NCBI RefSeq assembly: GCF_010499265.1
Contig: NZ_JAAGSC010000044.1
Coordinates: forward strand, 341,266 to 405,265
Reading direction: 5' to 3'
From: Wenzhouxiangella limi
GTDB taxonomy: Bacteria > Pseudomonadota > Gammaproteobacteria > Xanthomonadales > Wenzhouxiangellaceae
Length of the DNA stretch: 64,000 nt
Positions 31,827 through 36,543 of this stretch are shown here, piece by piece; the first letter of the stretch is position 1, and the number at the start of each line of letters is the position of its first letter. The translations under genes were made by a program, and so were the position numbers. The notes under the pieces are model-generated. The model was not told the DNA's origin, did no database searches, and saw nothing but the letters and a program-made list of their open reading frames with translations.

Positions 31827-31830
<4 letters not shown>
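31219..31830 (+). CDS. V/A-type ATPase subunit E (peripheral stalk)
   Basis: 203 residues. The N-terminal half is a long charged helix (CRDLRSEGATKVAELRRKAF), which pairs with the G/H-like subunit. The C-terminal globular part ends GGLVVDMSLAGLLVDEDFID, a typical subunit E close. It overlaps subunits F and A by 4 bases each. Confidence 0.87.
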
Positions 31831-33573
<1,743 letters not shown>

Positions 33574-33584
<11 letters not shown>

Positions 33585-34965
33585 TGTCATCCTCAGCGGC
33601 GCCCTGACCGGGCTGGAAGGCCCGTTGCTGTTTGCCCGCCGCGAAGCCAACGTGGCCTTGAACGACGCCGTCGAGGTCATCGGTCGCGAGGGCCGGGGGC
33701 GGGTCGGCCGGGTATCGGCGCTGGACGAGGAAGCCATGGTCATCGAGGTGCTTGAATCGACCACCGGGCTGGACCTGGACGGGACCCGCATCCGCATCCG
33801 CCAGCGGCCGCTGGAAATGGCGCTGGGCCCCGGTCTGCTGGGTCGGGTGTTCAACAGCGTCGGGGCGCCGATCGACGGCGGTCCGGCGCTGCCGGCCGAG
33901 CGCCGCCAGCGCGTCGACGGCATGGCCATCAACCCGGCCGCGCGCGACCTGCCGCGCGATTTCATCGAGACCACGGTCTCGACCATCGATTTGATGAACA
34001 GCCTGGTCCGGGGCCAGAAGCTGCCGCTGTTTTCCTGCGGCGGCCTGCCGCACGATCGCCTGGCCACCCAGATCGCCCAGCGTGCCCGGCTGCGCGACGC
34101 CCAGGCCGGCGAGTTCTGCGTGGTCTTCGTCGGCATCGGTGTGCCCTACGACACCGCCGAGAACTTCCGCTACGCGATGGAGAAATCCGGCGCCCTGGCG
34201 CACACGGCGATGTTTCTCAACCACGCCGACGAGCCGTCCACCCAGCGCCTGCTGACCCCCAGGTTCGCGCTGACCGCGGCCGAGTACCTGGCCTTTGTCG
34301 AAGACCGGCACGTGCTGGTGGTGATGACCGACATGACCAACTACTGCGAAGCCCTGCGCGAGGTCTCGGCCAGCCACGGCGAGATCCCCAGCCGCAAGGG
34401 CTATCCCGGCTACATGTACTCCGACCTGGCGACCATTTTCGAGCGCGCCGGCTGCATCAAGGGCCTGCCGGGAACCCTGACCCAGCTGCCCATTCTGACC
34501 ATGCCCGGCGACGATATCGGCCACCCCATCCCGGACCTGACCGGCTACATCACCGAGGGCCAGATCGTGCTCGGGCGCGAGCTCGACCGCAAGGGCGTCT
34601 ACCCGCCGGTCGAGGTGCTGCCCAGCCTGTCGCGTCTGATGGACGCCGGCACCGGCAAGGGCTATACCCATCCCGACCACCCGGCGCTTTCGAATCAGCT
34701 GTTCGCCTGCTACGCGCGCGCCAGCCGGGCGCGCGTGCTGGCTTCGGTCATGGGCGTCGACGGACTGCCGGAAACCGACCGCCGCTTTCTCGAATTCGGC
34801 GATGCTTTTGAGGAACGCCTGGTCAGCCAGCAATACCCGCGCACGCTCGAAGAAAGCATGGCGCTGGGCTGGGAGCTTCTGCGCGCTCTGCCGGTGTCAG
34901 AGCTGACGCGGCTGTCGGGCGAGCAGCTGGCCTGCTACATTGAAGCCCCGGCCGAGGCCGGCTAG
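33574..34965 (+). CDS. V/A-type ATPase subunit B
   Basis: 463 residues from ATG 33574, eight bases after AAGGAGG; an in-frame start 57 bases earlier has no such site. Non-catalytic nucleotide-binding partner of subunit A: the P-loop position reads SCGGLPHDRLATQIA, lacking Walker A, as expected for B. The segment VVMTDMTNYCEALREVSASHG and the late GYMYSDLATIFERAG are strongly conserved. The stop is 6 bases before subunit D. Confidence 0.95.
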
Positions 34966-34971
34966 CGCGCC

Positions 34972-35583
34972 GTGGCCGGGACCGAGACCAGCCCGACCCG
35001 CAGCGCCTTTCTCGAGCTGCAGGACGAGCGCCAGGTCGTGCGCGAGGGCTTCGAGTTCCTCGACGAGAAGCGCGTCATCCTGGCCCAGGAAATGCTGCAC
35101 CGGCTGGAAGTCTTTCAGCTTGATCGAGGCCGCTACCAGGCCCTGCACGCCGAGGCCGTGGTCGCCGTGGCCCGCGCCCTGGGCCGACACGGGCTCGATG
35201 GGCTGGAAGTCCAGCCGCCGCAGGTGCTCAAGTCAGCCAGGCTTGATCTGCGCGAGCAGCCTTTTCTCGGCGTGAGTCTGGTCGATGCCGAACTGGACCT
35301 GGAGCCGGGTGCGGCTGAACCGGCAGTCAATCCCTCGCCGGAGGCCAGGCGCTGTGCCGCAGCCTTTGGCGAACTCACCCGGCTGGCGCTGGCCATGGCG
35401 GTCCAGCGATCCTGCCTCGAGCGCCTGATTGACGAATACATCCGCACCGAGCGCCGCGCCCGCGCGCTGGAAAACGTGGTCCTGCCTGAAATCACCGAAT
35501 CGCTGGAATTCATCAACGAGCAGCTCGAAGCGGTTGACCAGGAAGAAGCCATCCGCGTCAGGACCGCGCGCAAAAGCGATTGA
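34972..35583 (+). CDS. V/A-type ATPase subunit D (central shaft)
   Basis: 203 residues, GTG start at 34972, the only start close after subunit B. Helical hairpin protein: the N-terminal [20 protein letters not shown] (usual P-T-[RK]-x-x-L motif) and C-terminal [17 protein letters not shown] are diagnostic of subunit D, the rotor axle inside the A3B3 ring. Last gene of the operon. The -35 box of the next tRNA promoter overlaps its stop codon. Confidence 0.92.
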
Positions 35584-35701: not shown

Positions 35702-35752
35702 AAAATGACTTGATTTTGCGCCCGTAGCTCAACTGGATAGAGCATCGGCCTT

Positions 35753-36446
35753 TGAGCAGCGCAGCCTTCGGGTTGCGTGACAAAAGGAGCCCCTGTCGGG
35801 AAACGGAACCGGCAGGGTGGACTGCACTGTAACGGGGAAACCTTAGCGGCGGCCGCGGCCGGCCGATGGCAATCCCGTGGAAACCGTCGGTTGCCCTATC
35901 CGATGGAGTAAGATGTGTGGCGGGTTGGTTTTGGCCTTCTGCCATGCATCACACCAAGGAAAAAGGTGACCTGGGAGTCTTGAAGGCTCAGGTGGATTTG
36001 TTCGAGCAGGGATTTACGATCCTGCAGCCGCTGACCGAGCACGCCCCGTTTGATCTGGTGGCGTATCGAGGAGGACGCTTCGTTCGGATACAGGTCAAAT
36101 ATCGCAGATTGGACCGCACGGGAAAATTGGAAGTCAAGTTCTGGACTTCCTGGGCCGACAGAAATGGAACCCATAGCGTGCCAGTCGACAAGAACGAGGT
36201 CGACGTCTACTGTGTTTATTGCCCGGATACGGATGAATGCTATTACCTTGATCCTGGTCAATTTGGCTACTCGGCCTGCCTGAGGGTAAGGGCGACCAAG
36301 AATCGTCAATCGCGCGGCGTTCGTTTCGCGAGCGACTTTCGACGGGTTCCGTAGAGACTATACGTGCAGCACCTGAGAAGGTGAAGAGATAGTCCAGACC
36401 ACAAACCCGGCCCAGGGCCGGGGCCGCGAAAGCGGTAGTTGGTAAG
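35753..36446 (+). mobile_element. group I intron in tRNA-Arg(TCT), with homing endonuclease ORF
   Basis: 694 bases. Core helices found by eye: P2 CCCTGTCGG/CCGGCAGGG (35791-35799, 35809-35817); P3 CTGCAC/GTGCAG (35822-35827, 36364-36369); P4 ACGGG/CCCGT (35832-35836, 35874-35878); P7 GACTAT/ATAGTC (36356-36361, 36389-36394); P8 CACC/GGTG (36370-36383). The GGGGAAACCTTAGCGG and AAGAGATAGTCC strings match the Q and S elements of the Azoarcus tRNA-Ile intron. The insert between P4 and P7 holds the endonuclease ORF, probably in the P6 loop. The 3' end has a GCGAAAGC tetraloop hairpin and a terminal G. P1 was not settled. Confidence 0.92.
35944..36354 (+). CDS. PD-(D/E)XK homing endonuclease of the group I intron
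   Basis: 136 residues from ATG 35944 (MHHTKEKGDLGVLKAQVDLF). The frame opens earlier at 35866, but that start is inside the P4/P5 ribozyme helices and adds no family sequence. Predicted PD-(D/E)XK residues: Glu6 in TKEKGD, Asp37 in APFDLVAYRGGR, and Q50-x-K52 in RIQVKYRR. The Q-x-K variant and short length are those I recall for the cyanobacterial tRNA-intron enzyme I-Ssp6803I. It likely cuts intronless tRNA-Arg genes to drive homing. The TAG stop ends one base before P7, so the coding sequence runs up against the ribozyme core. GC is lower than in neighbouring genes. Confidence 0.87.
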   Translation: MHHTKEKGDLGVLKAQVDLFEQGFTILQPLTEHAPFDLVAYRGGRFVRIQVKYRRLDRTGKLEVKFWTSWADRNGTHSVPVDKNEVDVYCVYCPDTDECYYLDPGQFGYSACLRVRATKNRQSRGVRFASDFRRVP

Positions 36447-36543
36447 CTAAGCCGGCGGTTGCAGGTTCGAGTCCTGCCGGGCGCGCCATGACATTCGGTC
36501 CGGGTTACAATACCGGGCTCGGAAAAATAAAAGTTTTGCCTGT

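What the first reader, a model, noticed from the sequence alone, without database searches (positions are those of the whole stretch)
35718..36488. Group I intron inside the anticodon of tRNA-Arg(TCT)
The tRNA is split after T34 by 694 bases with P2, P3, P4, P7 and P8 pairings and Q/S core strings like those of the Azoarcus tRNA-Ile intron. Bacterial tRNA group I introns known to me sit in tRNA-Leu(UAA), tRNA-fMet, tRNA-Ile(CAU) and tRNA-Arg(CCU). An intron in tRNA-Arg(TCT) that carries an endonuclease gene, in a gammaproteobacterium, would be a new or rarely described host gene. If this is the only tRNA-Arg(TCT), the cell depends on the ribozyme to read AGA codons.
Basis: partly seen in the sequence, partly recalled or inferred. 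Interest (0 to 1): 0.92.

Follow-up and report, generated by a model that had tools for sequence, protein, structure and literature searches.

The report
Mobile self-splicing intron in tRNA-Arg(UCU)
The only detectable gene for the transfer RNA that reads the arginine codon AGA is interrupted, inside its anticodon, by what looks like a self-removing RNA segment carrying a DNA-cutting enzyme, and close relatives of that enzyme sit beside the same transfer RNA gene in many phages and other bacteria.

Summary
It is a group I intron: in 34 homologous introns 1462 of 1492 cells pair, with double changes in 26 of 44 pairs. Fifteen congeners carry the empty site in the same tRNA cluster, 1-3 bases from the predicted spliced tRNA. 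The intron carries a PD-(D/E)XK endonuclease (PF11645) whose model best matches I-Ssp6803I (2OST). No intact tRNA-Arg(TCT) was found in the 99.6%-complete assembly, nor in 7 other intron-bearing congeners at up to 1 mismatch.

[quoted passage not shown] Not found in print: the endonuclease-bearing form, its presence-decay-loss within one genus, and the tie of its endonuclease to one tRNA. All 58 loci lie in, beside or among remnants of tRNA-Arg(TCT), and 35 of 40 viral relatives lie directly beside it without an intron. Splicing and homing are inferred, not shown.

The parts
35718..35752 (+). 5' exon of tRNA-Arg(UCU), ends in U34 (CTT|)
   Evidence: ARAGORN -i; 15 intact orthologues in the same cluster
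36447..36488 (+). 3' exon of tRNA-Arg(UCU), starts with C35 (|CTAA), with encoded CCA
35753..36446 (+). group I intron, 694 nt, kin of the tRNA-Leu(UAA)/Arg(CCU)/CAU-tRNA introns; ends in omega-G 36446
   Evidence: covariation in 34 homologues; R1 model also finds Leu(UAA), Arg(CCU) and CAU tRNA introns
35787..35789 (+). internal guide GAG pairing with exon CUU (P1, with U.G at the splice site); 35785-35786 AG pairs with 3' exon CU (P10)
   Evidence: P1 102 of 102 cells paired (the exon side was in the selection pattern, the guide side was not); P10 pair 1 in 34 of 34, pair 2 in 31 of 34, pair 3 in 18 of 34, not in the window
35791..35817 (+). P2 (35791-35799 with 35809-35817)
   Evidence: 301 of 305 cells paired, all 9 pairs with double changes
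35822..35827 (+). P3 5' strand, pairs with 36364-36369
   Evidence: 204 of 204 cells paired, 5 of 6 pairs with double changes
35832..35878 (+). P4 (35832-35836 with 35874-35878), enclosing P5 and P5a
   Evidence: P4 170 of 170, P5 68 of 68, P5a 93 of 99 cells; the last four bases of the P4 3' strand were in the selection pattern (CCGT or CCGA)
35879..35885 (+). P6 5' strand, pairs with 36345-36350; the endonuclease gene lies in this loop
   Evidence: sequence inspection; P6 was part of the selection pattern, so not counted as evidence
35944..36354 (+). endonuclease gene, 136 aa from ATG 35944, PD-(D/E)XK; its last codons overlap P6 3' strand and J6/7
   Evidence: PF11645 E 3.3e-38 (on the longer 162-aa frame, matching residues 28-159); 2OST by sequence E 6.6e-5 and by fold E 1.7e-10, TM 0.78; dN/dS 0.08-0.09 against L041 and L042
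36356..36394 (+). P7 (36356-36360 with 36390-36394), P3 3' strand 36364-36369, P8 (36370-36373 with 36380-36383)
   Evidence: P7 169 of 170, P8 136 of 136 cells; GTC of the P7 3' strand and its first G were in the selection pattern
36406..36435 (+). P9 (36406-36412 with 36416-36422, inspection) and P9b (36424-36427, GAAA loop, 36432-36435)
   Evidence: P9b 136 of 136 cells, 4 of 4 pairs with double changes; P9 not counted

Best explanation
A mobile group I intron sits in the cell's only detectable tRNA-Arg(UCU) gene, between U34 and C35. Step 1 (inferred): the precursor folds; exon CUU pairs with guide GAG; a free guanosine in P7 attacks after U34; the freed exon attacks after omega-G; a 77-nt tRNA results, which the cell needs for AGA codons. 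Step 2 (inferred): the intron's I-Ssp6803I-like PD-(D/E)XK endonuclease cuts intronless tRNA-Arg(UCU) alleles near the anticodon, and repair copies the intron in (homing). Shown here: exact boundaries and empty sites, covarying ribozyme core, endonuclease family and fold, purifying selection, the family's tight tie to tRNA-Arg(TCT), and presence, decay, loss and absence within one genus.
For: Boundaries. Covariation: (1462 of 1492 cells; shuffle mean 1276, maximum of 500 1298). Empty sites: among 30 congeners 8 have the intron, 15 the exact empty site (26 bases), none both, 7 neither. Endonuclease; dN/dS 0.04-0.13 in 8 of 9 pairs, one saturated. Life-cycle stages: full (window; L106 in a one-contig genome), decayed endonuclease gene (L097/L107, 459 nt), gene lost (L110 243 nt, L114 281 nt). 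Mobility hint: endonuclease identity to the window is 76% both in L043, where the host trigger factor is 41% identical, and in congener L044, where it is 64%. tRNA-Arg(TCT) introns form one bipartition against 42 other tRNA introns, support 1.0.
Against: No RNA data. Rfam's group I model does not call the window's intron. Within the genus much of the pattern could be vertical descent with losses (window-L041 dS 0.53; L042 89% endonuclease, 81% trigger factor), and the endonuclease may simply change more slowly than trigger factor. The shuffles ignore relatedness; the exon side of P1, parts of P4 and P7, all of P6 and the omega-G lay in the selection pattern. P10 is only two pairs in the window. 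With two mismatches allowed, intron-bearing congeners still show 1-2 places for a shorter tRNA pattern; in G000 the one place fits tRNA-Arg(CCT), the others were not listed.
Confidence: 0.92

Rival explanations
1. The intron splices, but its endonuclease no longer homes; it is inherited vertically and kept because tRNA-Arg(UCU) is essential.
For: The endonuclease tree groups most gammaproteobacterial copies together; decayed and ORF-less copies exist in the genus; congeneric copies are old (dS 0.53).
Against: The window's gene is intact with dN/dS 0.08-0.09 against its two nearest relatives, and its identity does not follow that of the host protein.
Confidence: 0.2
2. The tRNA gene is dead: a mobile element destroyed it and AGA is read otherwise.
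For: AGA is rare: 15 of 17,876 codons in 40 long window ORFs, a crude set.
Against: AGA still occurs; both exons stay within 1-3 bases of intact orthologues; the ribozyme core is held by compensatory changes; no intact copy was found in the 8 intron-bearing congeners at up to 1 mismatch.
Confidence: 0.03
3. The insert is not self-splicing RNA but a gene inserted in a tRNA and removed by protein enzymes, as in archaeal tRNA introns.
For: Rfam does not call it.
Against: P3-P7 pseudoknot with covariation and a guide sequence; RF00028 matches two ORF-less copies.
Confidence: 0.02
4. Assembly or binning artefact.
For: Draft assembly of 44 contigs; Ala-TGC and Ile-GAT genes not found.
Against: Same tRNA neighbours in independent assemblies, including a one-contig 3.49-Mb genome; junctions at the same bases in 33 loci and the window.
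Confidence: 0.01

Closest known systems
I-Ssp6803I intron in tRNA-fMet of Synechocystis PCC 6803
   Same: Group I intron in a tRNA gene that encodes a PD-(D/E)XK homing endonuclease; related by sequence and fold (2OST); listed in PMC1995217 (passages) as tRNA-fMet, 655 nt, 150 aa
   Different: Different tRNA; about 23% identity in the structural alignment; the present family is tied to tRNA-Arg(TCT)
Putative group I intron in tRNA-Arg-TCT of Beggiatoa BOGUAY and Thiomargarita Bud S10 (PMC4853749, passages)
   Same: Same host gene, gammaproteobacteria
   Different: The interrupted Bud S10 gene is given as 79335-79658 (324 bases), which leaves no room for an endonuclease gene; structure and type not determined by the authors in the passages read; sequence not compared here
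[quoted passage not shown]
   Same: Insertion after U34 following CUU; guide GAG in most; found by the R1 model in other families of the order
   Different: 3' exon AAA and mostly ATT or TTT before GAG, against 3' exon CUA and AG before GAG in 30 of 34 here, UAG in at most 18; 204-233 nt in the Leu(TAA) rows, no gene; separate branch in the tree
tRNA-Arg(CCU) introns of alphaproteobacteria (Bartonella BbgpI self-splices, PMC7717549, passages incl. abstract)
   Same: Arginine tRNA, small group I intron; Arg(CCT) introns are found by R1
   Different: Inserted after the whole anticodon (CCT|), other isoacceptor, 228-314 nt, too short for this endonuclease gene
Free-standing homing endonucleases of T4-like phages (PMC3943268, passages)
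   Same: Endonuclease gene outside any intron in phages
   Different: The passages read count 12 in T4 and name six families; here it is a PD-(D/E)XK family and the neighbour is tRNA-Arg(TCT) in 35 of 40 viral contigs

Membership tests
Group I introns | Core P3-P8 with P3/P7 pseudoknot | tested here: met
   P3 204/204, P4 170/170, P5 68/68, P7 169/170, P8 136/136 cells, with double changes; parts of P4 and P7 lay in the selection pattern, P6 not counted
Group I introns | U.G pair at 5' splice site and guide sequence | tested here: met
   U.G 34 of 34, P1 102 of 102; the exon side was selected for, the guide side was not
Group I introns | Terminal omega-G | tested here: met
   G before CTAA; it was part of the selection pattern, so weak as a test
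Group I introns | Match to Rfam RF00028 | tested here: inconclusive
   Window: no match; two ORF-less relatives E 1.1e-5 and 1.2e-5, below the curated score; ORF-less L114: none listed
Group I introns | Self-splicing with guanosine | not testable with these tools
   needs RNA
Group IC3 subgroup | Kinship with bacterial tRNA introns usually classed IC3 | tested here: inconclusive
   R1 finds Leu(UAA), Arg(CCU) and CAU introns, but the class label and the comparison with Azoarcus are recalled
PD-(D/E)XK homing endonucleases (PF11645, I-Ssp6803I) | Family profile and fold | tested here: met
   (pLDDT 86.5)
PD-(D/E)XK homing endonucleases (PF11645, I-Ssp6803I) | Catalytic D and QxK | tested here: met
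   D37 invariant, Q50 and K52 at least 90% in 27 rows, aligned to D and QVK of 2OST; catalytic role recalled
PD-(D/E)XK homing endonucleases (PF11645, I-Ssp6803I) | Cleavage of the intronless allele | not testable with these tools
   needs protein; association with tRNA-Arg(TCT) is indirect support

The most novel reading that the evidence does not exclude
One endonuclease lineage is addicted to one tRNA gene, tRNA-Arg(UCU), and lives in phages, free-standing beside intact copies, as well as in bacterial introns. On this reading phages cut the host's tRNA-Arg(UCU) gene while carrying a divergent copy of their own; a free-standing phage or actinobacterial-type endonuclease was later captured by an intron already at the cut site (the Cytobacillus layout, intron in the tRNA and endonuclease gene about 190 nt downstream, being the intermediate); and the intron, by splitting the target, now shields its host from phage endonucleases.
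Probability: 0.2. Interest if true: 0.85.

Novelty: new member of a known kind. Interest (0 to 1): 0.62.

Why it matters
Plain ARAGORN and Rfam miss this tRNA, so genomes that carry it appear to lack a reader for AGA; other intron-split tRNAs may be missed the same way. The family gives a natural series in one genus (empty site, full mobile intron, decayed endonuclease gene, intron without the gene) for studying how such elements invade and decay. Its free-standing relatives beside the same tRNA in phages and Actinomycetota make the question of how introns and endonucleases join and part directly testable.

Tried and rejected
Rfam on the window and region: no group I hit. Free folding of the precursor (z -3.98) was not used as evidence. 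ARAGORN's 'Ser(gct)' calls at split genes were rejected as a one-base shift of the same junction, because the omega-G rule gives Arg(TCT). Its 'Gln', 'Phe' and 'Pro' calls at L043, L056, L061, L065 and L068 were checked by eye: L043, L056 and L065 hold the normal Arg(TCT) split, L061 and L068 are rearranged. L078's 'split' is spurious: the tRNA is intact upstream. 'Pyl(cta)' at L181 was read by eye as Arg(TCT).

Plasmids: no relative of the endonuclease. NCBIfam: nothing useful. Rows dropped: one search aligned 34 introns (33 loci and the window); L043, L050, L053 and L057 have both junctions but failed the pattern. Tree: 58 rows; L075, L088 and L093-L098 left out as partial or broken, L090 for a stop, and L178 gave no row. 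In one search eight introns with out-of-register ARAGORN names were relabelled by motif and one (Phe) was left as named. One search's midpoint-rooted display gave 0.46 at the root fork; the bipartition itself is 1.0. The larger tree (79 rows, quick method) is poorly resolved, so the order free-standing first, intron later is not settled; it hangs on the very long outgroup branch L101. Of 33 phage records matched only three were opened.

Full report
WHAT IS THERE. At 35718-36488 lies tRNA-Arg(TCT) split by 694 bases. ARAGORN in intron mode gives the gene, anticodon TCT and the junction gcctt-intron-ctaag; without intron mode it reports nothing there. By standard numbering, counted by hand, the cut is between U34 and C35. 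The joined exons form a 77-nt tRNA-Arg(tct). Neighbours are tRNA-Pro(tgg) upstream and tRNA-His(gtg) and tRNA-Lys(ctt) downstream.

EMPTY SITES. Of 30 genomes of the same genus, 8 have the intron by model R1 and 15 the exact 26-base empty site GGATAGAGCATCGGCCTTCTAAGCCG (one mismatch was allowed; all 15 matches are exact); none has both and 7 show neither. The 15 intact genes lie in the same Pro-Arg-His-Lys cluster (Lys is not listed in one, L143) and differ from the window's joined exons by 1 to 3 bases. This fixes the boundaries independently of any RNA model and shows an insertion polymorphism.

SOLE COPY. The window's assembly (3.35 Mb, 44 contigs, 99.59% complete) holds 40 intact tRNAs. 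The arginine anticodons are ACG, CCG and CCT; no intact TCT was found by tRNA model and ARAGORN or by pattern. Ala-TGC and Ile-GAT are also missing, so the assembly may lack a stretch. One other intron-bearing congener is a single 3.49-Mb contig (G099; 95% complete), also without the empty site at up to one mismatch. A shorter pattern with two mismatches gives one place in G000, on the strand and with the sequence expected of tRNA-Arg(CCT), and one or two in each other intron-bearing congener; those rows were not listed, so tRNA-Arg(CCT) is only the likely reading there. AGA makes 15 of 17,876 codons in 40 long ORFs of the window, a crude set: rare but used.

THE RIBOZYME. The endonuclease was used as query in genome contigs, giving 58 loci. 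From these and the window, 34 introns with both junctions and the core pattern were aligned with the gene left out. In ten helices (44 pairs) 1462 of 1492 cells are standard pairs, against a shuffle mean of 1276 and a maximum of 1298 in 500 shuffles; 26 pairs show changes on both sides. P3 and P7, which form the pseudoknot, both covary (P7 GACTA/TAGTC against GGCCA/TGGTC and GACTT/AAGTC). Limits: the shuffles do not keep relatedness, and the selection pattern fixed the exon side of P1, the last four bases of P4's 3' strand (CCGT or CCGA), the first G and the GTC of P7, all of P6, and the omega-G with the 3' exon. P2, P3, P5, P8 and P9b were not in it. The guide (GAG, in L065 GGG) pairs with exon CUU, with U.G at the splice site, in all 34; L056 is one base out of register in the alignment at the exon. 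P10 is two pairs in the window and three in at most 18 of 34. Rfam's group I model misses the window but matches ORF-less copies L110 (E 1.1e-5) and L073 (E 1.2e-5), below its curated score; ORF-less L114 and the Leu and CAT introns L116 and L128 gave no row.

KINSHIP OF THE INTRON. Model R1, built only from the 3' halves of these introns, found 22 of 250 genomes of the order: 10 strong matches (103 bits or more), all tRNA-Arg(TCT) once ARAGORN's register is corrected, and 12 genomes with matches of 38-60 bits, which lie in tRNA-Leu(TAA or CAA) or a CAT tRNA. In the phylum sample, 37 of 398 genomes matched. Loci were given for 30 of them, and one more (G031) was known; among these only the window's genome had an Arg(TCT) intron, the rest being Leu(TAA), Arg(CCT) and CAT tRNAs, with some ARAGORN calls out of register. 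Stricter filters were in use, and six genomes were not examined. In a tree of 79 introns the 37 Arg(TCT) introns are one side of a branch with support 1.0. Leu(UAA) introns also follow CUU and mostly use GAG; before it they mostly carry ATT or TTT to meet AAA, where Arg(UCU) introns carry AG in 30 of 34, and UAG in at most 18, to meet CUA. A move from Leu(UAA) to Arg(UCU), or the reverse, would have needed mainly that change; this is inference.

THE ENDONUCLEASE. The gene (35944-36354, 136 aa) sits in the loop of P6, and its last codons overlap the ribozyme core. Pfam PF11645 E 3.3e-38; 2OST by sequence E 6.6e-5. The AlphaFold model (pLDDT 86.5) best matches I-Ssp6803I: E 1.7e-10, TM 0.78, 23% identity. 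In 9 compared pairs dN/dS is 0.04-0.13 in 8; one is saturated and window-L044 nearly so. The own genome has one copy.

ONE tRNA, FOUR LAYOUTS. All 58 loci are tied to tRNA-Arg(TCT). 37 are introns with both junctions. 6 are partial or rearranged copies with one tRNA half or remnants: L060, L061, L068, L075, L088, L094. 1 is Cytobacillus gottheilii L073: a 288-nt intron in the tRNA with the gene about 190 nt downstream. 14 are free-standing genes beside an intact tRNA-Arg(TCT): 12 Actinomycetota, one gammaproteobacterium (L071) and one Planctomycetota (L078). In an independent class sample 8 of 369 genomes matched: the window's, two more with the Arg(TCT) intron (L175; L177/L180 with the gene in two pieces), L174 (the L061 type), L176 free-standing beside an intact tRNA-Arg(TCT), two partial copies near tRNA-Pro (L173, L179), and L178 (37% identity), for which no tRNA-Arg(TCT) was seen. 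Phages: 33 records matched and three were opened. Synechococcus phage Sf-FR1 (58% identity) and Acinetobacter phage Herod (43%) have the gene next to tRNA-Arg(TCT); in Klebsiella phage FKP10 (31%) it lies in a tRNA cluster with Arg(TCT) about 560 nt away. Of 40 IMG/VR contigs found with the alignment, 34 by ARAGORN and one more by eye (L181) have it directly beside tRNA-Arg(TCT), upstream or downstream. The five others are L104 (Arg(TCT) 432 nt away), L209 and L210 (beside Ser(GCT)), L211 (no tRNA) and L214 (none near). In 21 viral loci with three or more tRNAs including Arg(TCT), phages Sf-FR1 and Herod among them, it is adjacent in 20, with 7.3 expected for random gaps and at most 17 in 200,000 simulations; several of these contigs are near-copies. 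In the 40 contigs no true split Arg(TCT) was seen; the one ARAGORN split (L184) spans an intact gene.

HISTORY. In a 58-row protein tree, intron and free-standing states need 4 changes (shuffled mean 16.8). The gammaproteobacterial free-standing L071 and the viral L102 fall inside intron-borne groups, so genes have probably left introns. Which state came first is not settled. Endonuclease identity to the window does not follow that of host trigger factor: 76% against 41% in L043, 76% against 64% in congener L044, 69% against 36% in L056, but 89% against 81% in L042. A slower pace of the endonuclease could explain part of this. Within the genus there are full introns, a decayed endonuclease gene (L107, 459 nt) and introns without it (243 and 281 nt).

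PRINT. [quoted passage not shown] 2013a, not seen) and in Thiomargarita Bud S10. PMC8450103 (passages) discusses fMet and Ile2 introns. PMC4033280 (passages) lists cyanobacteria, alpha- and betaproteobacteria. [quoted passage not shown] PMC11835236 (passages) describes a database of 42,459 group I introns, which I could not search. PMC3984707 (passages) says that phage introns then known were all in protein genes. Ten paper searches, of openly licensed papers only and with capped listings, showed me no tRNA-Arg(UCU) intron with an endonuclease and no endonuclease family beside tRNA-Arg(UCU).

VERDICT. A real, well-bounded group I intron with an intact endonuclease gene in the sole detectable tRNA-Arg(UCU) gene: a new member of a known kind. 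The tie of its endonuclease family to one tRNA across phages and several bacterial phyla is the more surprising part.

Noticed in passing
L116-L120, L123-L125, L127 (same order, several families): tRNA-Leu(TAA) genes split by group I introns of 216-233 nt that plain ARAGORN does not report.
   Followed up: partly
L121, L122, L126: tRNA-Leu(CAA) genes that seem split after C34 (CTC|AAA) with guide GAG, which would make a C-G instead of U.G pair at the splice site.
   Followed up: no
G031 (L121, L127, L128): One genome with three R1 matches in three tRNAs (Leu CAA, Leu TAA, CAT).
   Followed up: no
L078 1600-2300: Planctomycetota: the endonuclease gene follows an intact tRNA-Arg(TCT) and is itself followed by two further partial 3' halves of a tRNA.
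   Followed up: no
L061, L068: Two Ectothiorhodospiraceae MAGs carry the intron core with truncated tRNA exons; possible decay or assembly error.
   Followed up: no
L209, L210: Distant viral relatives of the endonuclease have tRNA-Ser(GCT) as their nearest downstream tRNA, hinting at a switch of target tRNA.
   Followed up: no
L060: A record titled Halobacteria archaeon carries a gammaproteobacterial-type copy (tree neighbour Ectothiorhodospiraceae); probably misbinned.
   Followed up: no
window 31827-35583: A set of ATPase-like genes in one direction ends just before the tRNA cluster (by reading the translations).
   Followed up: no
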